Below, piece after piece: positions 3,586 through 30,922 of a stretch of 35,699 nucleotides of DNA (positions are counted from its first letter, which is position 1; every line of letters begins with the position of its first letter). A program made the position numbers and the translations under genes. The stretch comes from a bacterium. Lineage in GTDB: Bacteria; Myxococcota_A; UBA9160; SZUA-336. The notes below the pieces were generated by a model. That model did not search any database and was not told the DNA's origin. It saw only the letters and a list, made by a program, of their open reading frames with translations. Where the stretch lies: assembly GCA_024226335.1 (NCBI GenBank), contig JAAELY010000192.1, positions 1 through 35,699 on the forward strand, in the 5' to 3' direction.

Positions 3586-5202
3586 ATGGAGTTCAATCTC
3601 GCGGATATGTTCGAGAATGCGGTCGACGCCTTTGGCGACCGCGATTGCGTGGTGGCGGAAGGCAAACGGTCGACCTACGCACAGATGGAAGCGCGGGCGA
3701 ATCGTCTCGCGCATCATCTCGCCTCTCATGGGATCGAGCCCGGCGACCACGTCGGTATCTACGCCTACAACTCCGTGGAGTGGGTCGAGACGCTCTGGGC
3801 CGTCTTCAAGATCCGCGCGGTCTGGATCAACATCAACTATCGCTACGTCGAAGACGAATTGCGGTATCTGTTCGACAATGCTGATCTCAAGGCGCTGATC
3901 TACGCACGCGAGTTTGGACCGCGCATCGCGGCCGTGCGCGACTCCCTGCCGTTTCTTCAGCATGCGATCGTGCTCGAGGATGGCAGCGGCGCCGAAGCAC
4001 CGGCCCTGGATTCGATCGATTTCGAAGCGGCCGTGGCTGAGGGTTCACCCGAGCGGGACTTTGCCCCGCGTTCCGCTGATGATCGGTACATCATCTACAC
4101 CGGTGGCACGACCGGCTTGCCCAAGGGTGTGGTCTGGAGACACGAAGATGTGTTCTTCGCTCTGGGAGGAGGGAATGATCCGGCGACGGGTGTGCGCGCC
4201 GCGCATCCGGGAATCATGGTCGAGCGAGATGCCGGCCCTGCGACGTTTTTGCCGATCGCCCCGCTGATGCACGGAGCCACTCAGTGGTCGGTCATGGGAG
4301 GGGCTCTGGTCGGTCGCAAGAACGTCCTGGTCGCGAAATTCGATCCGCCCGAAATCTGGCGTCTGGTAGAGGCCGAGAAGGTCAATGGCATCATGATCAC
4401 CGGCGACGCGATGGGCCGTCCGATGATCGAAGCGCTTCACGAGGGCGGACCGACACGAGACCTGAGTTCCTTTTCGGTGCTGGTGAGCAGCGCTGCGATC
4501 TTCTCTCCGACGGTGAAGGATGACTTCTTCCGCTACTTCCCGAACCTGATCATCACCGATAGCATTGGAGCCTCAGAGAGCGGAAACAATGGCATGGTGA
4601 TCGTGACAAAAGGCAACTCGGCGATGTTGGGCGGGGGGCCGACAGTCAAGGCGGGTCCCGGTACGACGGTGCTGAACGACGACCTGGAACCCGTTATCCC
4701 AGGGGACGGCGTAGTCGGCAAGCTTGCGCGCTCCGGTGATATCCCGATCGAGTATTACAAGGATCCGGAGAAATCTGCGCAGACGTTCGTGACCAAGGGA
4801 AGCCAACGCTATTCCATCCCCGGTGATTTTGCCCGAATGGAGGCAGATGGCACAATCACGCTGCTCGGCCGGGGTTCGGTTTCGATCAACTCTGGCGGAG
4901 AGAAGATCTACCCAGAAGAAGTCGAGGCTGCGATCAAATCGCACTCCGATGCATATGACGCTGTCGTGGTGGGCGTGCCCGACGATCGATGGGGAAGTCG
5001 TGTGGCAGCGGTCGTACAGCCCCGAGAGGGTTCGACTCTGAGCCTCGATTCGATCCAGGAGCACTGTCGCAAGCACATAGCGGGTTACAAGGTGCCCCGC
5101 GAACTGCATATCGTGGCAGAAATCTGCCGTTCACCCAGCGGCAAGCCCGATTATCGCTGGGCAAAGGCCATCGCAACGGGCGAGGCGAGCTACTCGCCGT
5201 AG
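3586..5202 (+). CDS. Acyl-CoA synthetase (AMP-forming, FadD family)
   Basis: About 538 residues of the ANL adenylating superfamily. It should activate a carboxylic acid with ATP to an acyl-adenylate and then to acyl-CoA in the cytoplasm. The phosphate-binding signature is at ~170-180 (YTGGTTGLPKG), followed by VVWRHEDVF, as in the FadD17/FadD19-like branch that acts on bulky acyl chains such as steroid side chains. SGGEKIYPEEVE at ~436-447 is the hinge/A8 region, and the catalytic Lys motif SPSGKPDYRWAK lies near residue 519. ATG at 3586 begins the family-like MEFNLADMFE; the earlier in-frame GTG at 3547 adds an Arg-rich leader without support. Substrate assignment is inference. Confidence 0.9.
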   Translation: MEFNLADMFENAVDAFGDRDCVVAEGKRSTYAQMEARANRLAHHLASHGIEPGDHVGIYAYNSVEWVETLWAVFKIRAVWININYRYVEDELRYLFDNADLKALIYAREFGPRIAAVRDSLPFLQHAIVLEDGSGAEAPALDSIDFEAAVAEGSPERDFAPRSADDRYIIYTGGTTGLPKGVVWRHEDVFFALGGGNDPATGVRAAHPGIMVERDAGPATFLPIAPLMHGATQWSVMGGALVGRKNVLVAKFDPPEIWRLVEAEKVNGIMITGDAMGRPMIEALHEGGPTRDLSSFSVLVSSAAIFSPTVKDDFFRYFPNLIITDSIGASESGNNGMVIVTKGNSAMLGGGPTVKAGPGTTVLNDDLEPVIPGDGVVGKLARSGDIPIEYYKDPEKSAQTFVTKGSQRYSIPGDFARMEADGTITLLGRGSVSINSGGEKIYPEEVEAAIKSHSDAYDAVVVGVPDDRWGSRVAAVVQPREGSTLSLDSIQEHCRKHIAGYKVPRELHIVAEICRSPSGKPDYRWAKAIATGEASYSP

Positions 5203-5393
5203 CGTTCTTTCAGCCTGGCCGCGTGCTCGGCCCTGTCCGTTCTCTCCAGGCGCTCCAGGTAAGCGGGCAGATGACCCCGGACGTGCCATGGACCTCCCTC
5301 GGTCAGCACGGTGTGCATCGGATCCACTCCGGTGGGATGGTCGCGCATTGCATCACCATGCCAGCGGTCGAGTTCCCCGAGTGCCCGGCCGGC
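5190..5393 (-). pseudogene. C-terminal fragment of a sulfatase-like gene
   Basis: Read on the minus strand from an in-frame TAG at 5394-5396 down to a TAG at 5190-5192, there are 67 codons with natural protein composition. They include GELDRWHGDAM, the phrase VLTEGGPWHVRGHLPAYLER and an end in LKERYGE. From memory, a Gly-Gly-Pro-Trp/Phe-His-x-Arg-Gly-x-Leu-x-x-Tyr ending is typical of the C-terminus of a sulfatase subfamily. There is no start codon with a ribosome site, and the upstream part is cut off where the IS200-like sequence begins (~5400). It ends convergently, overlapping the stop of the acyl-CoA synthetase by about 13 bases. It may be the missing tail of the broken sulfatase at 8052-8765; that link is inference. 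Confidence 0.4.
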
Positions 5394-5399
5394 CTAGAC

Positions 5400-5759
5400 C
5401 AAGAAGGGAGACACCCCGGCTTTGCCGGGGAGGCATTCAGAGTTTGACAGTTCCGGGATTCGTCGGGAGAACTCCCGAGCGTGGACCGTGCAAAGCATCA
5501 CGCAAGGGAGACTCCATTGACGAGAAGAGGAAGTCTAAACCACACGGCGTGGGAGTGTAAGTGTCACGTCGTGTTCATTCCGAAGTACCGGAAGAAGACG
5601 ATCTACGGGACGGTACGTGTGGAACTGGGAACGGTGTTTCGCCGTTTGGCCGAGCAACGCGAAAGCTGGATCGAGGAAGGCCATCTTCAGGCTGACCATG
5701 TGCACATGATGATCTCGATTTCACCAAAGTATTCGGTGTCCCAAGTGACCGGTTACTAA
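5400..5759 (+). mobile_element. IS200/IS605-family element remnant
   Basis: The left side contains a perfect hairpin, CCCCGGC-TTT-GCCGGGG (5414-5430), like the subterminal hairpins recognised by Y1 transposases, and a second inverted repeat, TCGGGAG-AA-CTCCCGA (5463-5478). The transposase frame follows at 5517. The element loses its right part near 5759: no second half of the gene and no right-end hairpin is visible. The exact left end is uncertain by perhaps 10-20 bases. No accessory tnpB is present. Confidence 0.7.
5517..5759 (+). pseudogene. tnpA: Truncated IS200/IS605 Y1 transposase (TnpA)
   Basis: About 80 residues from a TTG start preceded by AAGGGAG. The frame matches the N-terminal half of TnpA: SLNHTAWECKCHVVFIPKYR near the start, then the HUH metal/nuclease motif DHVHMMISI and the following SPKYSVSQV. 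In complete proteins (usually ~130-150 residues) this is followed by the IKGKSA-type helix and the catalytic tyrosine. Here the frame diverges after SQV, giving TGY and a stop, so the catalytic Tyr is missing and the protein cannot transpose. Spelling around the start (LTRRGSLNH) also suggests small changes relative to intact copies. Confidence 0.85.
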
Positions 5760-5847
5760 CGGATAGGGAGCATAATGGGGGCTTCGGGGTTCTGATAAGG
5801 GTCTTGTTTGCACAGAGACACGCTTCGGCGCGGGCGTCTCGTGCCGC

Positions 5848-7827
5848 TCATGTGGGCACGCCGAGGGCGAGCAGGCCCCCGCCCTGGGCCCGGCGTAGTT
5901 GATCCGCGGCGACGATGAAGCGCTCCGCGTGGGCGACGGGGACAAGCACCAATCGCCTCACGTCCTCGCGATCTTCCCACGGCACAGTGGAAAGCACATA
6001 TCCAGGGTGCGATGCGAGCTCCAGCACGCGCCCTTCGCCGTCGCAGTCCGGCGTTGCATCCTCCGCCACTGCGCCAGCTCCCACGGCACGAGCGGCCGCA
6101 ACGAACTCGTCGCCGAAGACGAGCGCTGCATCGTGATTCCGCGCAACCAGGATCAGAGTGCTGTCGCGCACGCCCCAGACGAGATCGCGGTCAAGGATCG
6201 GTGAGAGGGTCCTGTCGTCGTTGAGGACGAACCGCTGTTCCGCCTCGCCGCTGTGGGGCCAGAGGTCCACGTCGCGGCTGGCGAAGGGCTCGCACTGGAC
6301 CGCCTGGCGCGGCTGGTCGGCGAGCCGGAGAACTCCGTCCGGCTCGAAGTGCACCACGATCGCATGGCCGACCGTTCCGACGCTCAGGTGCTGCCAATCC
6401 CTTCCCCGGAAAACGCCCTTCTCATGGGGCGAGCGAACGATCGCCTTCCCTGCATGCACACCGCCCAGGGAGAGGGGCACGGGCAGAGCGGAAGGAGCGC
6501 GTTGGCCCGTGACAGGCGTGGCCGAAACGTCCATGCGAAGGCGCAGTCGTTCCCGGTCGTTCAGATAGTTGGCCAGCACGACTTCGCCGCTCTTGGAAGC
6601 GCCGAGGACGAAGCCTCGCCAGGACTCCCAGGACGGCTGGATCGTGCCATCCCAGTTGACCACGAAGTGTGTGCGCTCCACCCGGGCCGGGAGGTTGCGA
6701 TGCACGGCGACGAGCATGCCCAACCCGGGCCGTCCTTCTACACGGCGCACTTCGCGGACCGGGGCGCACCCCTCGAAACCGTCTCGCACGATCTCCTCCG
6801 CAAGAGGCGCGCTCTTGAACGCTCGAGCCGCGATCTGCACGAGCGTCCGGTACGTCGGACCCAGATCCTCGGCGTCCACCATCCGCTCGCGCAGCGTCGC
6901 CCGGAGGTCGCCCTCGAAATCCGCCGACATCCTGCAGCGCTCGGCATCCAGCCGCAGAGCGAAGACGTCACGCCCCGATGCGGGCAACCCGCACTCGACC
7001 AGATACGCCCGGACGAACACGTCCCTCTGCTCGTTCGTCCTGCAGAAGCGGTCCATCGAGAAGGCGATGTCCTGGATCGCGGAACTCACGCACGCACTCT
7101 CCAAGTCCACAAGCTTGAGGCCGTCTCCATCCCGGACGAGATTGCCGTGATGGACGTCCCCATGGATCGTGACGAGACTGGATCCGGCCTCGGTGATGGG
7201 CGACGGACCGGCCTCAATCCAGCGGCGTTGCCACTCGGGTGGGATCGACTCGAAGAAATGCTGCGGCATCGAGGCGAATCTCCAGATGTACGAGGTACGC
7301 GACGCCTCGCGCAGAGCCGGATAGCGCTCGCACTTTCGGCTGCGGATCTCGTCGTACCAGGTCGGCTCGATGGCATGCACGCGCGCAATCAGCCGCCCGA
7401 CCTCCTCGCAGAGGTCGAGGTCGGGCGCGATCGAAGGGTTGCAACCGGCCCACTCCTCGACGAACCACTCGCGCTGGGGATCCTCGGCGATCCGGCAAGG
7501 ACCCAGCCCGGCATCGGCGAAGCGTTCCTGGGCCAATCGCATCCGATCGAAGAAGATCGGTTCCGCGGCCGCGGGGCAGAAGAACTCGTGCACGACATGC
7601 AGTGCCACCGGACGGGCGAGCGGCTCCGCCTGGTTCGTCAGCCGGTGTACCTTTCCTCCCGCACGCCCGCTGAAGTCCTCGACGCAGACGTCCGCGGCGC
7701 GAACAGACTCCCACCCTGCGAGCCGGCCGCGCAGTGCGTCCGCCATGGTCGCGGCGATCGCATCCGGATCTTCGCGCCAAGGCCTCGAGCGTGAGTTAGG
7801 GCGTTCCGGATCCTTCGATGCAACCAT
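5848..7827 (-). CDS. Choline/aminoglycoside kinase-like protein with C-terminal beta-rich domain
   Basis: A 659-residue intact frame. Residues ~25-330 look like the APH/choline-ethanolamine kinase fold: the HGD catalytic loop appears as IHGDVHHGNLV, the metal-binding segment as LVDLESA, and AGLGPCRIAED...WFVEEWAG plus LIARVHAIEPTWYDEI match the choline-kinase-like lobe. It should transfer phosphate from ATP to a small hydroxyl compound; the substrate is unknown. Residues ~350-659 are a second, beta-rich region not normal for this family. Phrases such as EQRFVLNDDRTLSPILD and HPGYVLST recall ricin-type beta-trefoil or AbfB-like repeats, but this is a weak resemblance. It sits among pseudogenes; its start is three bases from the stop of the cyclase stub upstream. 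ATG at 7746 is an alternative start. Confidence 0.72.
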   Translation of the reverse strand: MVASKDPERPNSRSRPWREDPDAIAATMADALRGRLAGWESVRAADVCVEDFSGRAGGKVHRLTNQAEPLARPVALHVVHEFFCPAAAEPIFFDRMRLAQERFADAGLGPCRIAEDPQREWFVEEWAGCNPSIAPDLDLCEEVGRLIARVHAIEPTWYDEIRSRKCERYPALREASRTSYIWRFASMPQHFFESIPPEWQRRWIEAGPSPITEAGSSLVTIHGDVHHGNLVRDGDGLKLVDLESACVSSAIQDIAFSMDRFCRTNEQRDVFVRAYLVECGLPASGRDVFALRLDAERCRMSADFEGDLRATLRERMVDAEDLGPTYRTLVQIAARAFKSAPLAEEIVRDGFEGCAPVREVRRVEGRPGLGMLVAVHRNLPARVERTHFVVNWDGTIQPSWESWRGFVLGASKSGEVVLANYLNDRERLRLRMDVSATPVTGQRAPSALPVPLSLGGVHAGKAIVRSPHEKGVFRGRDWQHLSVGTVGHAIVVHFEPDGVLRLADQPRQAVQCEPFASRDVDLWPHSGEAEQRFVLNDDRTLSPILDRDLVWGVRDSTLILVARNHDAALVFGDEFVAAARAVGAGAVAEDATPDCDGEGRVLELASHPGYVLSTVPWEDREDVRRLVLVPVAHAERFIVAADQLRRAQGGGLLALGVPT

Positions 7828-7830
7828 GGG

Positions 7831-8055
7831 TCACCGGCCGGCGGTTGGCCGGCTCCGCCTTCTCGTAGATGGCCCCTCGGAAAAGAAGCGCTCGAGGATC
7901 GCGTGCCACTGCTCGGCGCCGAGCTGCTCGGCCAGCTCCATCGAGCTCTTTACGTCGGCAAGCAGGATGGTCACCTGCTTGCACTCGCCCTCCAGCGTGG
8001 ACTTCGATTGCAGGATCCGGTCTGCGAGGTGACGCGGCGTTATCACTTTCTTCAT
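7831..8055 (-). pseudogene. N-terminal stub of a class III adenylate/guanylate cyclase
   Basis: The first ~58 codons match the entry to a class III nucleotide cyclase domain: TPRHLADRIL, LEGECKQVTILLADVKSSMELAEQLG (first metal Asp at ~34) and WHAILERFF. Intact proteins of this kind then continue with the VHRFEGTVNQ and GDGIMALFGAP segments and often AAA/TPR regions. Here the frame turns to unrelated SEGPSTRRRSRP and stops, so the second metal Asp and all substrate-binding residues are gone. The ATG overlaps the stop of the sulfatase remnant upstream (ATGA) and has GAGGATCGAGGC before it. It is a deletion remnant, almost certainly without cyclase activity. Confidence 0.8.
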
Positions 8056-8765
8056 GCCTCGATCCTCTTATCGCTTCCATCCGCCCACATTCTACCGGTG
8101 CCGGCTGTCGAGGAGCAGTGGACCGCGGCGCGTGCGATGGAAACAGCACTTCGGTGATGATCCGATGCGCCCGATCTTGGACCGCCCCGGCGCAGACTGA
8201 TCGCCAGCGCAAGGACGTTGCGGTTTGGCCGCCTACCGAGCAGTTCCAGGATCGATGCCGACAGATCGATCTGGTAGTGCAGGCCGCGATCAGTTCGACC
8301 CCGATTGGTTGCGACGGAATCGGGCCAGACGAGCAAGGTGGGTACGCGCGAGGTGTGCTCGTCGGCAAGATGGTGATCGCAGTACACGTTCAGCTCGCCG
8401 AGCGTCTCGCCGCGGTCTGAAGAGAACAGGATGGCGGTGTCATCGAGGATTTCGAGGTCGGAGAGCTTGTTGATCAGGCGACCGACGTGCTCGTCCGCGT
8501 AGCGGATGCCGGTGTCGTAGCCGTCGTACATTCGCCGGACTGCATCCATCGAGTCCCGCGAGATCACACCATTGCGTATCCCGAAGCGGCCCGTCAGAAG
8601 AGCTTTCCGGCTCGGCACGCAGGGCGTGTCCGAGGTGTAACAGCTTTCGAATCGGATACCGCGTGCAGCCAGTGCATCGATATTCGGGCTGGTGTCTCGC
8701 GGGTAGCCGTAGCAGCCCAGGTGGTCTGCACGCAGTGTATCGATATCGATGTGGAGTAGACGCAT
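8052..8765 (-). pseudogene. Broken sulfatase (internally deleted, tail lost)
   Basis: The 237-codon frame begins like an alkaline-phosphatase-superfamily sulfatase: metal Asps in HIDIDTLRADHLGCYGYPRDT and the formylglycine motif C49-V-P-S-R followed by KALLTGR. After GRFGIRNGV it jumps directly to a late segment (YDTGIRYADEHVGRLINKL), so roughly 150-200 residues normally present are missing. The second metal motif reads SDRGE, where SDHGE is expected. After the LSASILELLG segment the frame becomes unrelated. These three defects make a functional enzyme unlikely. The lost tail may be the fragment at 5190-5393, same strand and correct order, 2.7 kb away. Confidence 0.8.
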
Positions 8766-9073
8766 CCGCTGCGCATTTCAGCACAATCTCAGTGGGTCTT
8801 CCATGGGACGCCGTCCGCTCGAGGTCGCGCGTTCCTGGGTAACGAGCTAGAGTCGACGCTCGGCGAGGGATCCCCGTACGAAATAGCGCGCAAGTGCGAA
8901 GCAGCTTTCTGGAAAACCCCCCGAGAGGTTTGATGGGTTGCCCGATCCGATGCGGAAAACGCTCATCGGAATCGACACTCGTTTACGACACCGATGGCAT
9001 CCGATCGCCACGAACTCTTGTGGAGAGGTCATTTCAACCCCTCGGGTTTTGCTCCGGGGAGGGGGGATTCATC
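8766..9073. other. Non-coding gap between divergent genes
   Basis: About 308 bases between the sulfatase remnant (minus) and the exported protein gene (plus). A frame open from 8894 into the downstream gene carries Cys/Arg-rich residues and no ribosome site, so I treat it as leader. AGCTAGAGT at 8844-8852 resembles the -10 motif seen at other genes here, but it is over 200 bases from the next start. I see no riboswitch or other structured element. Confidence 0.4.
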
Positions 9074-10990
9074 ATGAGATCGACGACCAGGAAACGCTTC
9101 CTGTTGATCGCTGTGCTTTTCGGGTTGTTGCCGATTGCGGGTCTGGCTTGGGCTCATTCGATCTACCGTGATCTATGGGTTCATCCACGAGGCGAGCTAT
9201 ACGACCCAAAGCAGCACTATGCTGACCTGTCTGCAGAGAACTACTATTTCGCCGAGAATGACGTTCAGGTCTCCATCGGTGAAATGGCCATCAGCGCAGA
9301 GACGCAGTTGGCGGTCGATCTGGGTCCAGATCTGTTCGCCGTCGTCGAGCGTTCGAAAGGTTCTCTGATCCCTGTCATCTTGTTGGACACGAGCAACCAC
9401 GGGCATCCCGACAAGACGTTCCGAGGGCGCATCGAAGGCAATCAGGCCGTATTCGACCTGGCGCCTCTGCGCGAAGGCGGATTCCCGAGTTCGCTCTGGC
9501 AATTCGGTATTCGCTATTCCGCAGGTGCGGATGGGGACCTGAGCCTGAATGGGCGCTATCTGGCTTCTGTGGCTTCGGATGAAGCAAAGATCCGAAATCT
9601 ACCCGCGGTGGGCGCCGGGCCGCGCTTCGCTCCCGGCCTGGCAATCTTCAAACACCGCGCTGGAATCCCTTTTGACCTGGCCGATTTCATCGAGCATCCC
9701 GAGAAGTACGTCGAGGATTTTGATCGATTGACGCGCGCCCCCGACGAGGATGACTGGACGCTGGAGGATCGGGAAGGGAAGCTTGTCTCCCACTTCGGGG
9801 ACGAGGATCTCTATCTCGTTCGAACCGAGGGCGACTACGAACTCGCGGTGAAGTGGGGTGATGTTCCGCTCTTGCACTTCATGACGGACTACCTGTCGGT
9901 AGCTCCGAATCGCGATGCCTGCTACAGCTCGCTCGATACGCAACTCAGGAACTCGGACGAGAGCCACACGGTCGTTCCCTATCGCTACCTGTATTGTCCC
10001 GAGGCTTCCGTCGCACTGTTCGACGCCCCGGATGGTTACGAGATCGAAGTTGCCGCTCTACGTGGAGACGATGTCTACGAACGCACCGATATCGGAACCT
10101 CCATCGCCGACAATATTCGCCTGTACGCAAAGGAGATCTACCCTCGCTCTCCGTTGAACCGTTCCACCGGAACGATCGCTGGCAATGTGGTTGCGAGCTT
10201 CAAGGATGCCGGGCGCGATCTCGGCAGCATTCTCGGTCACGGAATCGTCGGCTCCCAGGAACGCGACGTCCACACTGGCCAGGTCTCCTACCGTCCTTCA
10301 CCGGTTACAGCAATCCCGCTGGCCGTGCTCTCGCTAGCGACTCTGGAGCCTTTTGACGCGCTGAGCCAGCTCTTCGAGGGTGTTGCGAGTGGCATCCAGG
10401 TTGGGGCCGATGCGGTCAGCGCACTGGACAACGGTGTGGTCAACCCCGCTCTCCAGGTCACGGTCGGCGCGGTCGCCGGTACCGAATCAGCCGACCAGGC
10501 CGGTCACTGGTTCGGGGCGACGACCCAGGCGGTCGTGAAGAACCTGCCGGGCGGAGAGCGGTCGGCAACGACCATAGATCCTGAGGCCTACTGGAATCAC
10601 AATCGCGGTTTCGCGACTTCTCGTTACACCCGTACGGACACCGAACTCAACATCGATCGCGCGGTGACCGTCCTCGACCTCGCGGGAATTAGTGCCATTC
10701 AGCGGCACAATGACGACCGTTGTCACCAGGACTGTGGCGAGTCGGAAGATCCCCCTAAGGGCAAGAAGCCGCCGAAGCACAAGAAGCCGCCTAAGCACAA
10801 GAAGCCGCCGAAGCACAGGAAGCCGCCGAAGCACAAGAAGCCCCCTAAGCACAAGAAGCCGCCGAAGCACAGGAAGCCGCCTAAGCACAAGAAGGTGTCG
10901 AAGTACAAGAAGGCGCCGCGACACAAGAAGCCGCCCGTCTGCAAGACGGGCAGATACAGGAAGCCCTCGAAGCTGGCGAGCCTTTTCTAG
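9074..10990 (+). CDS. Unrecognised exported protein with Lys/His/Pro repeat tail
   Basis: About 638 residues. A basic start (MRSTTRKR), a hydrophobic helix and an AWA cleavage site at ~26-28 form a clear signal peptide. The ATG at 9074 is supported by GGGGGG about six bases before it; in-frame codons further upstream give no signal sequence. Residues ~30-550 are acidic and soluble-looking, and I do not recognise a family. A segment at ~420-520 (LGSILGHGIVGS, GAVAGTESADQAGHWFGATT) is Gly/Ala-rich. A Cys pair in CHQDC precedes the tail of ten six-residue units of type PPKHKK and a final basic stretch. The tail may bind anionic surface polymer, nucleic acid or metal, which is speculation. A PilY1-like gene follows on the same strand. 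Confidence 0.75.
   Translation: MRSTTRKRFLLIAVLFGLLPIAGLAWAHSIYRDLWVHPRGELYDPKQHYADLSAENYYFAENDVQVSIGEMAISAETQLAVDLGPDLFAVVERSKGSLIPVILLDTSNHGHPDKTFRGRIEGNQAVFDLAPLREGGFPSSLWQFGIRYSAGADGDLSLNGRYLASVASDEAKIRNLPAVGAGPRFAPGLAIFKHRAGIPFDLADFIEHPEKYVEDFDRLTRAPDEDDWTLEDREGKLVSHFGDEDLYLVRTEGDYELAVKWGDVPLLHFMTDYLSVAPNRDACYSSLDTQLRNSDESHTVVPYRYLYCPEASVALFDAPDGYEIEVAALRGDDVYERTDIGTSIADNIRLYAKEIYPRSPLNRSTGTIAGNVVASFKDAGRDLGSILGHGIVGSQERDVHTGQVSYRPSPVTAIPLAVLSLATLEPFDALSQLFEGVASGIQVGADAVSALDNGVVNPALQVTVGAVAGTESADQAGHWFGATTQAVVKNLPGGERSATTIDPEAYWNHNRGFATSRYTRTDTELNIDRAVTVLDLAGISAIQRHNDDRCHQDCGESEDPPKGKKPPKHKKPPKHKKPPKHRKPPKHKKPPKHKKPPKHRKPPKHKKVSKYKKAPRHKKPPVCKTGRYRKPSKLASLF
10751..10930 (+). repeat. Ten 18-bp tandem repeats inside the Lys-rich tail
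   Basis: The unit is CCGCCGAAGCACAAGAAG, coding PPKHKK. The first unit reads PPKGKK, the next seven are PPKHKK or PPKHRK with third-position changes (CCG/CCT/CCC, AAG/AGG), and the last two are degenerate (VSKYKK, APRHKK). The silent differences show that the array is not brand new. The perfect 18-base core could still expand or shrink by slippage without breaking the frame. Confidence 0.95.
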
Positions 10991-11032: not shown

Positions 11033-11242
11033 TGGGCGGGTCACGATCGCCTTCTGGAGTTCTCCCGACGCGTGATTCCACTCTGCAGAGTTTTCCCGGT
11101 CCGCAAAGATTGCACTTCATGCGTGTGCAACTCGGCGCTCTAAGCAGCGCAGCGAGCGTATTGGCGCAGGCACGCCGCTTGCTCAATGAGCCTCCGACGC
11201 GACGTCCCTGATCCTGGGGGCGTCCTGGAAACGGAGCCGCAT

Positions 11243-14200
11243 ATGACCGCTCGATTCATCGCATTTCAGGCCGCACTGCTCGTGCTTCTACCCTCGATCG
11301 CTTTGGCCAGCGCCACCGACGATCTTTCGATCCTCTCGCAGAGCGTGCCTCCGAAGGTCGTGCTGCTACTCGATACCTCGGGTTCCATGCAGTTCGCGAT
11401 CAATCACGATGATTTCAATGTGAACACCACCCGCTGGAAGTTCAACGATCGGCATCCTCTCCGCCTGCACGACAACACGGACGGCACGTACTGCAATTTC
11501 GGAACGGTTCCCGAGGAAGCCGGTACCACAGGCCTCTGCCCCGGCAGCCAGCACGCATCTGCCGATGACCGCTGCCCGGATACGGACGATTTCGGATCCA
11601 GAAGGTACGGCAACAAATCGTATTACTGCGAAAACATGCCGAGTGGCTGCACGAATGCCCCGACGGGTTGGACCTGTTGGGTCGCGGGTTCGCGAACCTA
11701 TCTGGAATTGCCTGACTATGGTCCGCGCCACAGCACGGACTGGCAGCGCAACTACCTGCACTGGATCGCTCAGCAGATGCATGCGGGGAACCAGTTGACA
11801 CTCCCGGCTCAGGACCGCATCGGAGCCGCGAAAGACGCCATCAAGGGGCTGATCGACGGAATCAACACACCTGGACTTGCAGATCGTGTCCACTTTGGGC
11901 TGGCCCGGTTTGAGCTGAACAGCAACGGTGGTTATGTGCTGGTTCCCGCCGAAGACGGTAGTCGTAACGACATCTTCGCGCGTCTCGATGATACGACGAC
12001 TACGGGCTATACCTCGACCTATCCCAATGGTGGAACACCGCTCAGTGAATCACTTGTAGATATCGGCCGCTATTACGTGGGCTCGAACGAGCTCGGTGAC
12101 TACTCCGCCTACAATCGCAACGATGCCACTGGTTCAGTGCCTGACAGCCCGCTCGACTCGACCTGTCGATCGGCCTATGTGGTGGTCATGACGGACGGGG
12201 CGCCGACAAACGACCTGAACATCCATCATGGCGGAGACTTCACCTCCACGATCGGAAATGCGGATGGTGATACCAATGAGTCTCCTGATGCCTGGAGCGG
12301 TCGTACGCCGACCAACTACGTGCTCCCGTATTCGAGCAACTCGGGTAGCGACTGGTTGGACGACGTGGCCTACTACCTGTCTCATAACGATCTGATCGAC
12401 GATTCCGTCATGGAAGACGATCAGAGCATCTATACCTACTCGGTGGGTTTCACGATCGACCATCCGCTGCTCGACGAGACCGGAATGAACGGGCAGGGGG
12501 ACTACTTCACGACTGCGAATGCCGATCAGTTGCAGGCGGATCTCGAGGCGGCCCTGCTTTCGATTATCGAGAAATCGTCATCGCTGACCTCCGCTACGGT
12601 ACCTGCAAGTCGCTCCGCATTCGGTGACGGGTTCTATACGGCGTTTTTCATCCCCAGTAACAAACCTTCCTGGAAGGGTCACCTGCAGACCTACCGTCTG
12701 ACGCCAGACCTCCTGGTCGTGGACAAGAACGGCAATGCGGCTCTGGATATCAGCACGAATCTATTTCTGGAGCCGCGCTTCCCCTTCTGGGATGCCGGAG
12801 ACGAACTAGCAAGCGTCTCGCATCCGACGCGCAGTCTGTACACGACGAAGTCTTCTGCGCGGACGGCCTTCAGTACCGCGAACATCGCCGCGGCCGATCT
12901 TGGAGTGACGAATGGAGAGCTCACCTCCTACCCGAACGATCCGGCCGTGCCTTTTGCCACGACCGAAACGCTGACGGACGGAATCGTCGATTACATGATA
13001 GGGACGGATGCCTTCGATGACGACCGAGACACCGATACGGCAGAAAAGCGTTCCTTCGTTCTGGGTGACATCTTCCACTCCAATCCGATCAGCGTGGGTC
13101 CCCCTCCAAGCGCATTGCACGACGAGGACGGATTTGGTCCGGAAGATCTCTCGGGTACCTTCCTCTACGCGCAAAAGGCCAGGGATCGTCGTATCTTCGC
13201 CGGGGCCAACGATGGTTTCCTGCACGCCTTTAATGGGGGTTCGTTCAACCTGGGCGACAACCCCTCGACGCCCGAGACGGAGTCGGGCTACTACGACCTG
13301 GGCAATGGCCAGGAGGTCTTTGGCTACGTTCCGGGCTTCATGCTCGACTCGGTAAAGATGATCCCCCGCAACTCGCCGCGCGCCAACTACTACGTAGACG
13401 GCAGCCCGGCGGCAGCGGACATCTGGGTGCCCAGTAGCAGCGTCGACGTGACGAAAGAAGGCAGTGAATGGACGACTCTCCTGGTGACCGGAATGCGCCA
13501 GGGCGGGGCCGGGTATCTCGCCCTGGACGTGACGGATCCAGGTGCGACCGTGGTCGGGCCCCACGGCCCGTATCCCAAACTGATGTGGGAATTCGATGAC
13601 ACGAGTGAACCGCTGGGTGAGACCTGGTCCGAGCCGATCATCACGCGCGTGAGGATGAAGGCCAGTACAGGTGTTGGTGACTACTGCGGTCGGGATAGTA
13701 GCGATGACGGTGACTGTCGCGAGCAGTGGGTCGTGATTGTCGGCGGAGGCTACGATTCGAAGGCAGATCCCAACTTGAGCACGTTCGGATCCGATCCGAA
13801 CGATGCGAACTGGACCACATCGAGCAAGGCGATCTTCATGCTCGCGGCAGATACGGGGGACGTGCTGGCAAAGGTTGCCTACGACCCGAATGACTCGACC
13901 CTCAGCAAGATGAAGTACTCGCTGGCCAGCACTCCGGGAGTGCTGGATCTGGACCAGGATGGCCTGGCGGATGTCGTCTACATCGGTGACCTGGGAGGTC
14001 AGCTCTGGAAGTGGGATATCAGCGAGAAAGGTGAGGATGCGGATCTGGACGGCCTCGTGGACTCGACCGTCTGGCCCGCCGGTATCTACTTCTCCTCTCC
14101 CGCGGCCAACGTGGGTGATATCGACGGCGATGGCAACGACGACTACCACTACCACAGCATCTTTTTCCCGCCGATTGCCACCTACGTCGACAGTAAGTTG

Positions 14201-14815
14201 CTTCTCGCTTTCGCGAGCGGAGAACGCACGGATCTCAAGTACGAAGGGGCGGCTTCCTCGCCGGCGACGCTCGAGGGCCTCTATGACGACAACAACCGTT
14301 TCTGGGTGATATGGGATCGCGTTCCGATCGGCAGCGGGGCGTTCGATGTGGAAATCAGCGAGGGCTACCAGACGATTGGCGGAACTATCCGCGGTATAAA
14401 CGATATCACGACCCTGACATCGGATAATGCTCCCGATGATGACGGTTACTATATCAAGGTGCCTGATGGTGAGAAGTTCATCGTCAACCACATCGTGTTC
14501 TCGGGTCTGACGTTGGCACTGAGTTATGTTCCGGACAACTCTGGAACCGATATCTGCAACGCAGTCGGCGAGTCCAACGTCTACATCTTCGGCATCAGCG
14601 ATGGTACGGGAGCGTTGAGCAGCGGAACCGCACGTTCGGTCAAGCTGGGCAACGGGGCCCCGACCGACCCGCGAGTCTCGGTGTCACGAGACTCCAATGG
14701 CAACATGATCGTGGAACTGGTTGGGCAGACCTCGCTCGGAGAGGTCTTGAAGCTGCCGGTCCCCGCCGATCCACCACCGCCTTTCAGCAATGTTTACTGG
14801 CGGCAGCGCTTCTAG
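11243..14815 (+). CDS. PilY1-like protein: vWA domain plus calcium-binding beta-propeller
   Basis: About 1190 residues, close to typical PilY1/PilC size. ATG at 11243 gives a signal peptide (MTARFIAFQAALLVLLPS, cleaved near ALA-SA); the open frame from 11186 only adds an unlikely leader. The N-terminal vWA domain has MIDAS parts DTSGSM at ~43-48, NGGTPLSESL and VMTDGAP. Later, the PilY1 C-terminal propeller is shown by HSNPISVG, GANDGFLHAFNGG and VTGMRQGGAGYLALDVTDP. The calcium loop is DLDQDGLADVV at ~902-912, followed by YIGDLGGQLWKWDIS. PilY1 proteins sit at type IV pilus tips and govern adhesion and retraction. No type IVa pilus genes are in the window; a tad operon follows, so this may serve the Flp pilus. 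Confidence 0.9.
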   Translation: MTARFIAFQAALLVLLPSIALASATDDLSILSQSVPPKVVLLLDTSGSMQFAINHDDFNVNTTRWKFNDRHPLRLHDNTDGTYCNFGTVPEEAGTTGLCPGSQHASADDRCPDTDDFGSRRYGNKSYYCENMPSGCTNAPTGWTCWVAGSRTYLELPDYGPRHSTDWQRNYLHWIAQQMHAGNQLTLPAQDRIGAAKDAIKGLIDGINTPGLADRVHFGLARFELNSNGGYVLVPAEDGSRNDIFARLDDTTTTGYTSTYPNGGTPLSESLVDIGRYYVGSNELGDYSAYNRNDATGSVPDSPLDSTCRSAYVVVMTDGAPTNDLNIHHGGDFTSTIGNADGDTNESPDAWSGRTPTNYVLPYSSNSGSDWLDDVAYYLSHNDLIDDSVMEDDQSIYTYSVGFTIDHPLLDETGMNGQGDYFTTANADQLQADLEAALLSIIEKSSSLTSATVPASRSAFGDGFYTAFFIPSNKPSWKGHLQTYRLTPDLLVVDKNGNAALDISTNLFLEPRFPFWDAGDELASVSHPTRSLYTTKSSARTAFSTANIAAADLGVTNGELTSYPNDPAVPFATTETLTDGIVDYMIGTDAFDDDRDTDTAEKRSFVLGDIFHSNPISVGPPPSALHDEDGFGPEDLSGTFLYAQKARDRRIFAGANDGFLHAFNGGSFNLGDNPSTPETESGYYDLGNGQEVFGYVPGFMLDSVKMIPRNSPRANYYVDGSPAAADIWVPSSSVDVTKEGSEWTTLLVTGMRQGGAGYLALDVTDPGATVVGPHGPYPKLMWEFDDTSEPLGETWSEPIITRVRMKASTGVGDYCGRDSSDDGDCREQWVVIVGGGYDSKADPNLSTFGSDPNDANWTTSSKAIFMLAADTGDVLAKVAYDPNDSTLSKMKYSLASTPGVLDLDQDGLADVVYIGDLGGQLWKWDISEKGEDADLDGLVDSTVWPAGIYFSSPAANVGDIDGDGNDDYHYHSIFFPPIATYVDSKLLLAFASGERTDLKYEGAASSPATLEGLYDDNNRFWVIWDRVPIGSGAFDVEISEGYQTIGGTIRGINDITTLTSDNAPDDDGYYIKVPDGEKFIVNHIVFSGLTLALSYVPDNSGTDICNAVGESNVYIFGISDGTGALSSGTARSVKLGNGAPTDPRVSVSRDSNGNMIVELVGQTSLGEVLKLPVPADPPPPFSNVYWRQRF

Positions 14816-15527: not shown

Positions 15528-15683
15528 ATGCTGAAGCTCGTAAATCGTTTCATCCGCGAGGATGAGGGAATGGAAATGCTGGAGTGGGCGATCGTCGCCG
15601 TCGTGTTCGCCGTTGCGCTCGTGGGTGCGTGGCAGTTCGTGTTCGGACTCGTCAACGGCAAACTCCGCGGGATCACCTTCTAG
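15528..15683 (+). CDS. flp: Flp/Fap-type (type IVb) pilin
   Basis: A 51-residue pilin, the main subunit of the Tad pilus. The order is a short basic leader ending EDEG, a prepilin peptidase cut after Gly14, then M-E-M-L-E-W with the required Glu at +5, and a single hydrophobic helix to the short tail GKLRGITF. Classical Flp pilins have Tyr after the Glu (G/XXXXEY); here it is Trp. The ribosome site AGGGG lies eight bases before the ATG. It is the first gene of the tad operon and 34 bases before the prepilin peptidase. Only one flp gene is present in the window. Confidence 0.9.
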   Translation: MLKLVNRFIREDEGMEMLEWAIVAVVFAVALVGAWQFVFGLVNGKLRGITF

Positions 15684-15717
15684 GAAGTTCCCGAAATTGC
15701 ACCAACCAGACCAGGAA

Positions 15718-16362
15718 ATGATGACTCTGAATGCTGATACGACTGCGGAGACCGCGCCGACCGCGCGCTACGGGCTCCTTTCGGTGCTCGCAGCAGTGGC
15801 TCTGGCCTTCGGTCTCAACTGGTCTGGTCGTGTTGAGCCGCTGCCCGTCTTCGGATGGGCAGCGGCCTTCCTGTGCCTGGTCGTCCAACAAGACGTACTC
15901 CGTGGACGGATCCCGAATCTTCTGACGTTTACCGGCATCGCGCTCGCACTCGCTGCGAGCACATGGCTGGGAGGCGTTTCGGGTCTGCTCTCGGGTCTTG
16001 CGGGCGCGGGCGTGGCCTTCGGGCTGCTCCTTCCTGCATTTGCAGCACGCATTCTGGGTGCTGGGGATGTCAAAGCCATCATGGCACTGGGCGCTCTCTG
16101 GGGCCCCCAGATTGCGTTCTCGCTGCTCGGCTGGATGGTGCTCATCGGCGGCGCGATCGCCCTGCTCGTCGTGGGCATTCGCGGAGGACTCGGCGACATG
16201 CTCATGCGTTGGGCCGCGAGCTTTAGCGCATTCCGCGCCACGAACAAGTTTACCTATCTGCCGCCGGCGCCCGGAAGTGCTGCTTCTGGAAGCATGCCGT
16301 TCGGCGTTTCGATCGGTCTGTCTGTCATAGCTTTCAACATCTGGGGGACCCCATGGGCCTGA
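15718..16362 (+). CDS. tadV: Prepilin peptidase TadV/CpaA (A24 family)
   Basis: About 214 residues with five or six hydrophobic segments, so an inner-membrane aspartyl peptidase. The two catalytic Asps are seen in the Q-Q-D-x5-I-P-N motif (Asp ~58, VVQQDVLRGRIPNLLT) and in GAGDVK (Asp ~116). It lacks the N-terminal methyltransferase domain of PilD, as CpaA/TadV proteins do. It should cut the Flp pilin and the TadE pseudopilin after their Gly. ATG at 15718 and 15721 are adjacent; AGGAA before them suits the second slightly better. Its 3' end overlaps tadE by ten bases, so the two are translationally linked. Confidence 0.9.
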   Translation: MMTLNADTTAETAPTARYGLLSVLAAVALAFGLNWSGRVEPLPVFGWAAAFLCLVVQQDVLRGRIPNLLTFTGIALALAASTWLGGVSGLLSGLAGAGVAFGLLLPAFAARILGAGDVKAIMALGALWGPQIAFSLLGWMVLIGGAIALLVVGIRGGLGDMLMRWAASFSAFRATNKFTYLPPAPGSAASGSMPFGVSIGLSVIAFNIWGTPWA

Positions 16363-16769
16363 ACTCCCGCATGAAAAGAGAAGAAGGCGCTGCGATGCTC
16401 GAGATGGTCATCGTGCTCCCGCTACTCATGCTTCTTCTGTTCGGAATCCTCGAGATGGGACTCGCATTCGCCCGCTTCCAGGTGGTCTCGAATGCCGCGC
16501 GTGAAGGCGCGCGCGAGGCGAGTCTGTATCGAATCAACTGCGATGCTGGAACGGTGACCGGTGAGGTCAATACCGTCATCGCACGTTATGGCACCCAGTT
16601 TGGCATGACGCCCGGGAGCCTCTCGACGACCGTGACCGGAGCCTGTAGCGCCGGTGAGAGCACGGTTCGCGTCACATACACCAATAGTTTCATTGCACTG
16701 CCGAGCATCGGCGGGATTCCCAACTCGGTGAATCTCGTCGGCGAATCGGTGATGCGAAACGAAGTCTGA
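16353..16769 (+). CDS. tadE: TadE-like pseudopilin
   Basis: A 138-residue protein with the TadE pattern: a basic leader, cleavage after Gly12 (KREEG/AAMLEM, Glu at +5), a hydrophobic helix LPLLMLLLFGILEMGLAF and the phrase VVSNAAREGAREAS, which is diagnostic of TadE-like proteins. Two Cys (DCDAG-like region near 65 and GACSAG near 96) may form a disulfide in the periplasmic part. Most tad loci carry two pseudopilins, TadE and TadF; only this one is found here, so it may do both jobs. Confidence 0.88.
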   Translation: MGLNSRMKREEGAAMLEMVIVLPLLMLLLFGILEMGLAFARFQVVSNAAREGAREASLYRINCDAGTVTGEVNTVIARYGTQFGMTPGSLSTTVTGACSAGESTVRVTYTNSFIALPSIGGIPNSVNLVGESVMRNEV

Positions 16770-16797
16770 ACAACTCCTGATCAATAAGAGGGTAGAG

Positions 16798-17580
16798 ATG
16801 AAGAATCAACGCGCAATCCTGTTTCTCGGAGTCGCCGCACTGTGCGGTGTGCTGGCGGTCATTCTGACCCGCAGCTGGCTGCACGCGCAGATGCCTGGTG
16901 AAATTGCGGGAGTACAGACAATTCCGGTAGTCGTTGCCGCAGTGGGCCTGCCCGCCGGTGTCGAACTCGCCGCGCGCCAGGTCGATGTGGTCGACTGGCC
17001 CAAGGACAATCTTCCTCCTGGTACGCTGAGCGCACCTCACGCCGTGAACTCGCGCGTGCTGCGCCGAGCTCTGATCGAAGGCGAGCCGGTGCTCGAGTCG
17101 GCGCTTCTGCCGGTCGGGTCGGATGCTGGACTGACACCGCTGATTTCCGAAAATCACCGAGCCATGTCGGTCAAGGTCGATGCCGTAGTCGGTGTCGCAG
17201 GCTTCATCAAGCCCGGTTCGCACGTCGATGTGCTGGCGACGGTCCGACGTGTGGACTTCCACAAGCCGGTTCCCGAGTCGCACATCATCTTGCAGGACCT
17301 TCGCGTACTCGCGATTGATCAGACCCTCGAGAAGGCGGATCGCGGCAAGGCGGAAATCGTCAGTGTCGTGACGCTGGAGGTCGACCCGAATGAATCGCAG
17401 AAGCTGGCTTACGCGGTGGCCAATGGCACGCTGCAGCTCGCATTGAGGAATCCGGCCGACGATGCATCGGTGCGGACGAATAGCGTCACGGTGCGCGATC
17501 TCGTGAATCGCGGCACGCGGCGATCGGGCAACAGCGTAGAGACCGTTCGCGGCTCTTCGCGCTCGAAGGATTCGCTGTGA
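16798..17580 (+). CDS. cpaB: Flp pilus assembly protein CpaB/RcpC
   Basis: A 260-residue protein anchored by an N-terminal helix (residues ~7-26). The SAF/ChpA-like domain at ~40-110 is visible in IPVVVAAVGLPAGVELAARQ and LRRALIEGEPVLESALL. A RcpC/CpaB region follows: HRAMSVKVDAVVGVAGFIKPGSHVDVLATV at ~120-150 and VTLEVDPNESQKLAYAVANGTLQLALRNP. CpaB is a periplasmic partner of the secretin and may act on peptidoglycan or gate the pore. The start has GAGGG about six bases upstream. The C-terminal tail is Ser/Arg-rich and variable. Confidence 0.92.
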   Translation: MKNQRAILFLGVAALCGVLAVILTRSWLHAQMPGEIAGVQTIPVVVAAVGLPAGVELAARQVDVVDWPKDNLPPGTLSAPHAVNSRVLRRALIEGEPVLESALLPVGSDAGLTPLISENHRAMSVKVDAVVGVAGFIKPGSHVDVLATVRRVDFHKPVPESHIILQDLRVLAIDQTLEKADRGKAEIVSVVTLEVDPNESQKLAYAVANGTLQLALRNPADDASVRTNSVTVRDLVNRGTRRSGNSVETVRGSSRSKDSL

Positions 17581-17624
17581 TTCGCGGCTACAGAAATCAA
17601 CTCTCATCTGATGAAGGTGGAACG

Positions 17625-19253
17625 ATGATTCGAGAATACACACATAGTCAGGGCAGCATCAGCATGAGCAGCTCTCTTGCACATGCGGGCCGGGCGCTGG
17701 GTTACCTGGCCCTGCTTACCGCAATCGGGCTCTTCAGTGCGCCCTTCGCTTCGGCTCAGGTCGACCTGACGCCGAATAATGACGGAACTGTCGTGGTGGA
17801 GGGTGCAAAGAGCGGTGACGATATGCACCAGCGGCTCGAGCTGGAACGCGGCAAGACCGTAGTGCTCAAGCCGAGTTTCGCCGTCAAGCGCGTGGCCGTC
17901 GGCGATCCGAAGGTCGCGGATTTCGTGATGCACGGCTCCCGCGAAGTACAGATCGTGGGCAAGTCCGTGGGTGATACGAACATGATCATCTGGGACCGTC
18001 AGGGACGCATCCAGTCCGCTATCGACGTCCACGTCGGTGCGGTCCAGGCCCAGGTGGTGCGCGAGATCCAGCGCGTGCTGGGCAATAGTGACGTGAGTGT
18101 GGACATGGCCGGTGAGTCGATCGTCCTTCGCGGTACCGTCGCGAGTATCTCGGCCAGCGAGCAGGCGGAAGAGGTGGCATCCGCTTTCTTCGCGAAGAGC
18201 TCGAACGACGCTACGACTGACCCCGGTGCGAAGACCAACACTGTCGATACCGAACCACAGGTCATCAACATGCTGTCGGTCGGCGGAAATCATCAGGTGA
18301 TGCTCGAGGTCAAGATCGCTGAAGTGTCCCGCACCCTGAAGAAGAACATGGGTGCGAACTTTCGAGCGTTCTCCAATGGAAGTTCCAGCACGGGTGATTT
18401 CACCGTGTTCTCTTTCCTGGATGCCCTGACGAGCCTGAATGGAACGACGGGACTGTCGACGGTCGGAGACAGCATCACGCTTGCAGGAACTCTCCTGAAA
18501 GGCGACTTCCGAGGCGACCTGTTCCTCGAGGCGCTGCAAGTCGAAGGACTGGGCAAGATCCTCGCCGAGCCGACTCTGGTTGCGCGCAGTGGTGAGATGG
18601 CCAACTTCCTGGTCGGTGGTGAGATTCCGATCCCAGTCGTCCAGGGCGGCACGGGTGTGAACAATGTGACGGTGATCTTCAAGCGGTTTGGTGTGAACGT
18701 AGAGTTCACGCCCACCGTGCTGTCGCCGGATCGCATCCATCTGCTGATAGCTCCTGAGGTCAGTGAGCCTGACTTCAACTTCGGTACGACGGTCAGCGGT
18801 ACCACGGTGCCCGCCTTCCGTACTCGCCGCGCCTCGACTGGCGTAGAGCTGGCGGACGGACAGTCGTTCGCAATCGCGGGCCTTCTTCGCGAAGACATTA
18901 CGACCATGGTCAACAAGATCCCCGGTCTGGGTGAGGTTCCGATCCTCGGCTCGCTGTTCCGCAGTCAGGCCTTCGAGAAGAGCCAGACCGAGCTGATGTT
19001 GATCGTGACTCCGCGCCTGGTGAAGCCGCTAGGCCCGGGCCGGATTGCGCTTCCGACAGATCACTACATCGATCCCACCGACTACGAGTTCTATGTCCTG
19101 GGCCAGATCGAGGGACGGCATCCGATGACGGATCCGAACGCACCGACGACCTCGAGCATCTTCAAGAATGACGCGCCCGTTTCCGAAGCGGGCGGACTGA
19201 TCGGCGACTTCGGCTACCGCGTTGCGGTTCCGGCGCCGAATGGAGGCGAGTAA
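17625..19253 (+). CDS. cpaC: Tad outer-membrane secretin CpaC/RcpA
   Basis: About 542 residues. ATG at 17625 is chosen because GAAGGTGG precedes it; a GTG at 17577, overlapping the cpaB stop, is also in frame. The signal peptide ends at SAPFASA-Q. An N-terminal pilus-secretin domain (RGKTVVLKPSFAVKRVAVGDPKVADF) is followed by a BON-like segment and then the secretin barrel: LFLEALQVEGLGKILAEPTL, VEFTPTVLSPDRIHL and the signature IPGLGEVPILGSLFRSQ near 431-447, ending ELMLIVTPRLVKPL. The multimer forms the pore through which the Flp pilus crosses the outer membrane. Family length and all domains are intact. Confidence 0.95.
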   Translation: MIREYTHSQGSISMSSSLAHAGRALGYLALLTAIGLFSAPFASAQVDLTPNNDGTVVVEGAKSGDDMHQRLELERGKTVVLKPSFAVKRVAVGDPKVADFVMHGSREVQIVGKSVGDTNMIIWDRQGRIQSAIDVHVGAVQAQVVREIQRVLGNSDVSVDMAGESIVLRGTVASISASEQAEEVASAFFAKSSNDATTDPGAKTNTVDTEPQVINMLSVGGNHQVMLEVKIAEVSRTLKKNMGANFRAFSNGSSSTGDFTVFSFLDALTSLNGTTGLSTVGDSITLAGTLLKGDFRGDLFLEALQVEGLGKILAEPTLVARSGEMANFLVGGEIPIPVVQGGTGVNNVTVIFKRFGVNVEFTPTVLSPDRIHLLIAPEVSEPDFNFGTTVSGTTVPAFRTRRASTGVELADGQSFAIAGLLREDITTMVNKIPGLGEVPILGSLFRSQAFEKSQTELMLIVTPRLVKPLGPGRIALPTDHYIDPTDYEFYVLGQIEGRHPMTDPNAPTTSSIFKNDAPVSEAGGLIGDFGYRVAVPAPNGGE

Positions 19254-19546
19254 TGAAGCGCACGAATCTGGCACTGGCTCTGCTGCTGGCATCTGCTCTC
19301 AGCATGGGGTGCTACAGCGGAAACATGGTTCGAAAGGGCAACGTCGAACTCCACATGGGTCTCTCGCAGCGGGAAGCCGTTCAGCGGATGATCGCGGATC
19401 CGACTGCCGGTGAGCGAAATACACGCCCGGTCAGCGGGATCGATGCTCCGACCGCAGCGGGTGTGATGGACAACTATCACCGCAACGAGAGGGCCGAGAC
19501 CCAGGACAAGAAGGTCCGGGATCGCAGCCTCCGCAGCAACCGATAA
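19253..19546 (+). CDS. Small lipoprotein in the tad operon
   Basis: A 97-residue protein with a signal peptide and a lipobox LSMG-C at Cys20, so it should be lipid-anchored. The mature part is short and hydrophilic: MGLSQREAVQRMIADPTAGERN resembles the turn-rich repeats of small outer-membrane lipoproteins, and the end is basic. Its ATG overlaps the cpaC stop by one base (TAATG), so its production is tied to the secretin. CpaD/RcpB occupies this place in classical loci, but CpaD is about twice as long and I see no sequence match. A secretin-stabilising role is inference. No family is recognised. Confidence 0.75.
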   Translation: MKRTNLALALLLASALSMGCYSGNMVRKGNVELHMGLSQREAVQRMIADPTAGERNTRPVSGIDAPTAAGVMDNYHRNERAETQDKKVRDRSLRSNR

Positions 19547-19565
19547 GACAGGAGAAGCCGTAACA

Positions 19566-23108: not shown

Positions 23109-23123
23109 TCGGGAGAAGCTGAA

Positions 23124-24047: not shown

Positions 24048-24071
24048 GCCAAAAACGAACCTGGAGACCAT

Positions 24072-25139: not shown

Positions 25140-25153
25140 GCGGGAATAGAAGC

Positions 25154-30887: not shown

Positions 30888-30922
30888 TTCGAGGTGTTCT
30901 TCGGTACCCTCTAAATGCATCT

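What the first reader, a model, noticed from the sequence alone, without database searches (positions are those of the whole stretch)
5848..7827. Kinase fused to a possible beta-trefoil (lectin-like) domain
The first half is a choline/aminoglycoside-kinase fold with HGD and metal-binding segments intact. The second half (~300 residues) is beta-rich and has phrases like EQRFVLNDDRTLSPILD and HPGYVLST, reminiscent of ricin-B or AbfB trefoil repeats. Such a fusion would be unusual and might target the kinase to a sugar or glycan. It is the only intact gene in a decayed zone, which suggests it is maintained or recently acquired.
Basis: partly seen in the sequence, partly recalled or inferred. Interest (0 to 1): 0.5.

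Follow-up and report, generated by a model that had tools for sequence, protein, structure and literature searches.

The report
Orphan kinase with unidentified tail
A lone, probably imported bacterial gene joins a small-molecule-type kinase to a long tail that resembles nothing we could find; the proposed sugar-binding fold of that tail is neither supported nor excluded.

Summary
The open frame is real: 659 codons on the MINUS strand, 5848-7827, with coding signal through both halves. Residues 134-280 match Pfam APH above cut-off, and C-lobe residues H222, D224, N229 and D241 are present. No family matches the N-lobe. It has no Lys between 60 and 164, and an alignment puts Glu81 and Arg95 where most relatives have Lys/Arg and Glu, so "intact kinase" is too strong.

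The tail (345-659) has no significant Pfam match (best E 0.13) and no convincing solved relative. The genome, phage, plasmid and viral searches used gave no credible relative. A ricin-lectin profile scores it like shuffled sequence, its internal repeat is within chance, and AlphaFold models are unusable (mean pLDDT 31.8 and 39.3). The trefoil reading is unsupported, not disproved.

The gene is 67.2% GC against 59.9% for the rest of the contig and lies among gene remnants, so recent acquisition is likely. Best reading: an acquired orphan APH-fold phosphotransferase with atypical nucleotide-anchoring residues and an unclassified C-terminal module.

The parts
5848..7827 (-). The gene: 659 codons, ATG start, stop at 5848-5850
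   Evidence: coding signal; GC 67.2%
6988..7428 (-). Residues 134-280: match to Pfam APH (profile 91-231 of 239), the C-lobe part of the phosphotransferase fold
7141..7164 (-). Residues 222-229, catalytic loop HGDVHHGN
7096..7107 (-). Residues 241-244, metal-binding DLES
7528..7608 (-). Residues 74-100, presumed beta-3 and alpha-C of the N-lobe, with Glu81 and Arg95 in the columns where most relatives have Lys/Arg and Glu
   Evidence: the alignment is weak here
5851..6795 (-). Residues 345-659: unclassified C-terminal region
   Evidence: no significant match; models unusable:
6571..6666 (-). Residues 388-419 (FVVNWDGTIQP...), one of two look-alike stretches
   Evidence: within chance
6142..6231 (-). 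Residues 533-562 (FVLNDDRTLSP...), the other look-alike stretch
   Evidence: within chance
5481..5759 (+). Remnant of an IS200-type transposase next to the gene's 3' end
   Evidence: PF01797 profile 2-68 of 121, E 9.7e-18; no second copy in this genome
7831..8055 (-). 74-codon frame whose stop lies 3 bases before the gene's ATG; looks like the start of a class III adenylate cyclase
   Evidence: no Pfam match; the likeness is recalled, not tested
8052..8765 (-). Sulfatase remnant, middle of the domain apparently missing
   Evidence: PF00884 in two stretches, best 77-177 = profile 200-300 of 301; PF01663 4-79 = profile 2-74

Best explanation
A single, probably recently acquired gene for an APH-superfamily phosphotransferase that carries an unclassified C-terminal region of about 315 residues. 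Shown: one open frame with coding signal in both halves, an APH C-lobe with catalytic Asp224, Asn229 and metal Asp241, an outlying GC content, and no detected relative of the tail. Inferred: the C-lobe binds metal and nucleotide and moves a phosphate onto a hydroxyl of a small molecule or macromolecule, with nucleotide held in an altered way because the usual N-lobe Lys/Arg and Glu are absent, as reported for homoserine kinase 2 (HSK2). Inferred and weakest: the tail is a beta-rich module that selects substrate or partner.
For: APH match and C-lobe residues. Coding signal in both halves. GC 67.2% against a mean of 59.9% and a maximum of 61.4% in 91 other windows of the contig, and above all 50 windows from 23 other loci of this genome. 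Remnants on both sides. Joint loss of the beta-3 Lys and C-helix Glu has a precedent in HSK2 (PMC4702295, passages).
Against: The N-lobe alignment is weak. Loss of both anchoring residues is equally what a dead kinase would show. Coding scores lie at or below the low end of the reference ORFs. The own-genome GC sample consists of APH loci only.
Confidence: 0.5

Rival explanations
1. One reading: the tail is one or two divergent beta-trefoils that bind a sugar or glycan and so aim the kinase.
For: Phrases such as FVVNWDGTIQP, EQRF and HPGYVLST are in place. In the whole-domain lectin profile only 13 of 1000 shuffles reach the tail's -0.2 bits, the match being around EQRF. In the Foldseek list for residues 478-659, 15 of the 50 rows shown bear names I recognise as trefoil or trefoil-containing proteins.
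Against: Unit profile -0.3 bits, reached by 541 of 2000 shuffles and 45 of 258 control frames, while the 15 lectins it was built from score 79-190. Internal repeat within chance. The Foldseek rows are at E 0.6-2, TM about 0.1-0.2. No significant Pfam match. This genome has no match to PF05270 or PF14200 at E<=0.001.
Confidence: 0.17
2. The kinase half is a pseudokinase or a decaying enzyme: phosphate transfer is lost, and the protein is a binder or a gene on its way out.
For: The beta-3 Lys is absent under any alignment (no Lys from 60 to 164); Glu81 and Arg95 stand where 13 of 17 kinases have Lys/Arg and 15 of 17 have Glu; no family model matches the N-lobe; the neighbours are remnants.
Against: All four C-lobe residues are kept and the frame is open over 659 codons; a kinase group lacking both anchoring residues is described (HSK2; PMC4702295, passages).
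Confidence: 0.28
3. The tail is not a real domain: a chance extension or the fused remnant of another gene.
For: No relative of the tail in the collections searched. GC-rich frames stay open easily: the opposite strand has a 513-codon frame at 6253-7794. Codon score below the lowest reference ORF.
Against: The tail's sense-versus-antisense score (0.078) is close to that of the kinase half (0.093) and positive in each window. Third-position GC is 0.70-0.92 in the five 60-codon windows from 301 to 600. Both halves share the outlying GC, 66.5 and 67.9%.
Confidence: 0.1

Closest known systems
APH phosphotransferase superfamily (PF01636)
   Same: Residues 134-280 match above cut-off; catalytic Asp, Asn and metal Asp kept.
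   Different: Profile positions 1-90 (N-lobe) unmatched; usual Lys/Arg and Glu missing; extra 315 residues.
SrkA/YihE-type kinases (NCBIfam PRK11768)
   Same: Best NCBIfam hit, E 4e-9 over residues 135-275; relatives at 28-33% identity over 87-156 aligned residues include frames that I take to be of this type (naming recalled).
   Different: 36.3 bits against a cut-off of 194; the relatives have no comparable tail.
Homoserine kinase 2 (HSK2, ThrB type)
   Same: Joint absence of the beta-3 Lys and C-helix Glu is reported for HSK2 (PMC4702295, passages); weak hits to PRK05231 and thrB_alt at E 0.013 and 0.018.
   Different: 14.5 and 14.4 bits against cut-offs of 271 and 255.9; HSK2 is a smaller protein (profile length 307-322).
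Ricin-type beta-trefoil lectins (PF14200 and kin) and AbfB (PF05270)
   Same: Short look-alike phrases only.
   Different: No significant profile match.

Membership tests
APH phosphotransferase superfamily (PF01636) | Profile score above curated cut-off | tested here: met
   50 bits against 23.2
APH phosphotransferase superfamily (PF01636) | Catalytic loop Asp and Asn, metal-binding Asp | tested here: met
   D224, N229, D241
APH phosphotransferase superfamily (PF01636) | N-lobe Lys/Arg and alpha-C Glu | tested here: not met
   Glu81 and Arg95 in those columns; no Lys from 60 to 164. The alignment is weak; some kinases such as HSK2 lack the pair
APH phosphotransferase superfamily (PF01636) | Phosphate transfer from a nucleotide | not testable with these tools
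   Needs purified protein
SrkA (PRK11768) | Score above NCBIfam cut-off | tested here: not met
   36.3 bits against 194
Ricin-type lectin (PF00652/PF14200) or AbfB (PF05270) | Pfam profile match of the tail | tested here: not met
   No such family listed up to E 5 (whole tail) or E 10 (two pieces); own ricin-type profile at chance level
Beta-trefoil fold | Threefold-symmetric 12-strand fold | tested here: inconclusive
   Models too poor (mean pLDDT 31.8 and 39.3); fold lists without significance
Beta-trefoil fold | Internal repeats above chance | tested here: inconclusive
   Score 35 against shuffle mean maximum 31.7, SD 4.9; many true trefoils show no sequence repeat (recalled)

The most novel reading that the evidence does not exclude
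An APH-fold kinase with a reversed N-lobe ion pair (Glu81 on beta-3, Arg95 on alpha-C in place of Lys/Arg and Glu), fused to an undescribed beta-rich targeting module of six repeated units (two divergent trefoils or a six-bladed propeller), moved as a single cargo gene.
Probability: 0.08. Interest if true: 0.6.

Novelty: new variant of a known kind. Interest (0 to 1): 0.27.

Why it matters
If the protein is active, it would be a small-molecule-type kinase that works without the usual nucleotide-anchoring pair and carries a recognition module that none of the libraries searched here holds. If it is inactive, it is an ordinary decaying import. The case also shows how easily a beta-rich orphan region suggests a trefoil to the eye when quantitative tests put it at chance level.

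Tried and rejected
Relatives of the tail. Genome-contig scan with residues 340-659: 23 stretches matched a pattern, 0 confirmed. Sample of 377 genomes of the phylum: 3 matched at E<=0.001, one being this genome; the other two lie opposite longer frames of other genes and have a stop inside. 90 genomes of the class: 4 matched at E<=0.01, one being this genome; four weak extra places (one in this genome) sit in frames of 114-238 codons, three of the four with stops; one is the antisense place, the other three were printed and not pursued. 57 genomes of another class: 0, which the tool says shows nothing without a positive control. Phages and plasmids by tblastn: no match up to E 0.1. Viral contigs: whole protein, two tail pieces and the kinase half, none confirmed. 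These scans use exact 8-residue patterns or single-sequence scoring and would miss distant relatives; metagenome contigs were not open to search.

Relatives of the kinase half. 16 of 59 relatives matched the whole protein, one being this genome; the 15 others match only within residues 128-283. 377 phylum genomes at E<=1e-6: this genome and one more, residues 218-275. Plasmids: one weak hit, residues 197-276; phages: none. A second genome-contig scan gave 6 loci of 174 pattern matches, of which L084 is a DNA polymerase (my reading) matched by chance. This genome has 24 APH places, one being this gene. On re-check I read the frames of the 15 relatives and the 23 other own-genome places on their right strands: blastp with the tail hits 0 of 38 at E<=1; with the full protein all listed hits fall in residues 127-293. 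The long-tailed L041 has a P-loop kinase motif, not this tail (my reading). PADLOC: nothing up to E 1.

Alignment for residue counts: 18 rows chosen by me (6 genome-contig loci, 3 of 15 relatives, 9 of 23 own-genome places); L084 dropped before counting. Four of the 17 (L079-L082) are near-identical mycobacterial rows, with Thr in the beta-3 column.

Trefoil tests by own profiles, shuffles and regex: at or near chance. The 258 control frames are stop-to-stop frames on both strands of fetched loci, so many are not real proteins; one scored 162.8 bits and is probably a lectin left in. The 15 lectins are the profile's own training set. AbfB relatives were too rare for a profile of my own (1 of 140 genomes).

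Structure: two single-sequence AlphaFold jobs, two Foldseek lists and one VIA-align second look, all uninformative. No row of the VIA-align list is named as a trefoil; that is not evidence against.

Papers: all four of 'aminoglycoside phosphotransferase', 'beta-trefoil', 'fusion', 'kinase domain': 0 papers. Three of 'phosphotransferase', 'beta-trefoil', 'choline kinase', 'domain fusion': 1, unrelated by its listing; 14 papers hold two of three terms, listing only, except PMC4702295, of which passages were read. (orphan genes in MAGs): listing only, not used. The library holds open-licence papers only.

A passing idea that the gene ends in mid-unit and is truncated was dropped: the unit phase was my own choice.

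Full report
What is there. The frame is on the minus strand, 5848-7827, 659 codons, ATG start. The window is one whole contig (C192) of a genome of 5.75 Mb in 556 contigs, so a draft assembly, probably from a metagenome (inference). The organism was not identified. My guess of Myxococcota rests on one Cys-rich protein end in a genome of the same phylum (L018) and is no result.

Is it coding? With codon tables from 17 reference ORFs of the window, read in sense and in antisense, the log-likelihood ratio per codon is 0.093 for residues 1-345 and 0.078 for 346-659, positive in 12 of 12 overlapping 100-codon windows. The reference ORFs give 0.092-0.228, so the gene sits at or below their low end. 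Third-position GC is 0.70-0.92 in the ten 60-codon windows covering residues 1-600. Both halves are most likely translated, but their codon usage is unlike that of the neighbours.

Origin. The gene has 67.2% GC (66.5% kinase part, 67.9% tail). The 91 other windows of the same length on the contig average 59.9%, maximum 61.4%. Fifty windows from 23 other loci of this genome average 62.3%, maximum 66.8%; these are all APH loci, not a random sample. On its 3' side lies a transposase remnant (PF01797, profile 2-68 of 121). On its 5' side lie a 74-codon frame without a Pfam match, which looks like the start of a class III adenylate cyclase (recalled, not tested), and a sulfatase with a gap in its domain match. 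The repeat search of 5150-9000 listed 18 direct families and 16 inverted pairs, none that I would take for insertion ends. The segment 5440-5900 has no second copy in the genome. Acquisition is likely; the vehicle is unknown. The acyl-CoA synthetase frame at 3547-5202 matches its two Pfam domains nearly end to end, so the decayed zone is about 5.4-8.8 kb.

The kinase half. PF01636 matches residues 134-280 at E 4.5e-13. In a MAFFT alignment with 17 kinases (18 rows, the DNA polymerase L084 left out) the catalytic Asp is kept in 17 of 17, the metal Asp in 17 of 17, the Asn in 16 of 17 and the loop His in 16 of 17; this protein has all four. In the N-lobe, the column with Lys or Arg in 13 of 17 holds Glu81 here, and the column with Glu in 15 of 17 holds Arg95. 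The alignment is weak there, but the protein has no Lys at all from 60 to 164. [quoted passage not shown] The enzyme may thus be active in an unusual way, or inactive; the data do not decide. Membership is at superfamily level: the best NCBIfam model, PRK11768, reaches 36.3 bits against a cut-off of 194. Among 38 APH frames from relatives and this genome, the best blastp hits to the full protein reach E 4e-8 and stay within the kinase core.

The tail. No Pfam family is listed for residues 340-659 up to E 5. Residues 481-659 give none up to E 10, and residues 345-480 one at E 0.13, below cut-off. Solved structures give only weak matches, the best a designed protein at E 0.024. No credible relative was found in genome contigs, phages, plasmids, viral contigs, samples of 377, 90 and 57 genomes, or 38 APH frames. 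The kinase half is almost as isolated.

Trefoil or not? Tested, this does not stand out: the best internal pair scores 35 against a shuffle maximum of mean 31.7, SD 4.9; the motif regex hits twice, and 677 of 5000 shuffles do as well or better; a ricin-lectin unit profile gives -0.3 bits, with 541 of 2000 shuffles as high. AlphaFold from single sequences reaches mean pLDDT 31.8 for residues 345-659 and 39.3 for 478-659. In the Foldseek list for the latter, 15 of the 50 rows shown have names I recognise as trefoil or trefoil-containing (IL-18, FGF-1, designed trefoils, IP3 receptor), at E 0.6-2 and TM about 0.1-0.2; sliding clamps are about as frequent. The list for 345-659 shows no such lean that I can see. 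The VIA-align second look tops out at Z 3.5, with no trefoil among its rows by name. Six four-stranded units would also fit a six-bladed propeller. I give the trefoil 17%.

Verdict. A real, isolated, probably acquired gene: an APH-fold phosphotransferase with atypical N-lobe residues and a C-terminal region of unknown fold. The confidences overlap, because the question whether the kinase is alive and the question what the tail is are separate.

Noticed in passing
15562-26302 (+), with 11186-14815 (+): A Tad/Flp-type pilus cluster: prepilin peptidase, RcpC/CpaB, secretin, ParA-like ATPase, T2SSE, two T2SSF, TPR protein, TadE/G-like protein with a VWA-type domain; a PilY1-type protein lies upstream.
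   Followed up: partly
8894-10990 (+): A 698-codon frame without a Pfam match up to E 0.01, just before the PilY1-type gene.
   Followed up: no
28881-30920 (-): A 679-codon frame with laminin-G-like (concanavalin-type) domains, E 2e-34.
   Followed up: no
L019 828-1184; L018 1501-1899: The tail gives matches at E 7.7e-4 and 1.7e-5 to frames lying opposite longer ORFs of other genes, a caution about such E-values in GC-rich genomes.
   Followed up: partly
L041 (contig C176 of the same genome), minus strand: An APH frame of 583 codons that runs off the contig start and carries a P-loop motif behind the kinase part: a different two-domain kinase of the same genome.
   Followed up: partly
6142-6396 (-) and around: Three APH-type kinases appear at Z 2.0-2.4 in the VIA-align list for residues 478-659, two of them over their first 95 residues; probably chance at this model quality.
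   Followed up: no
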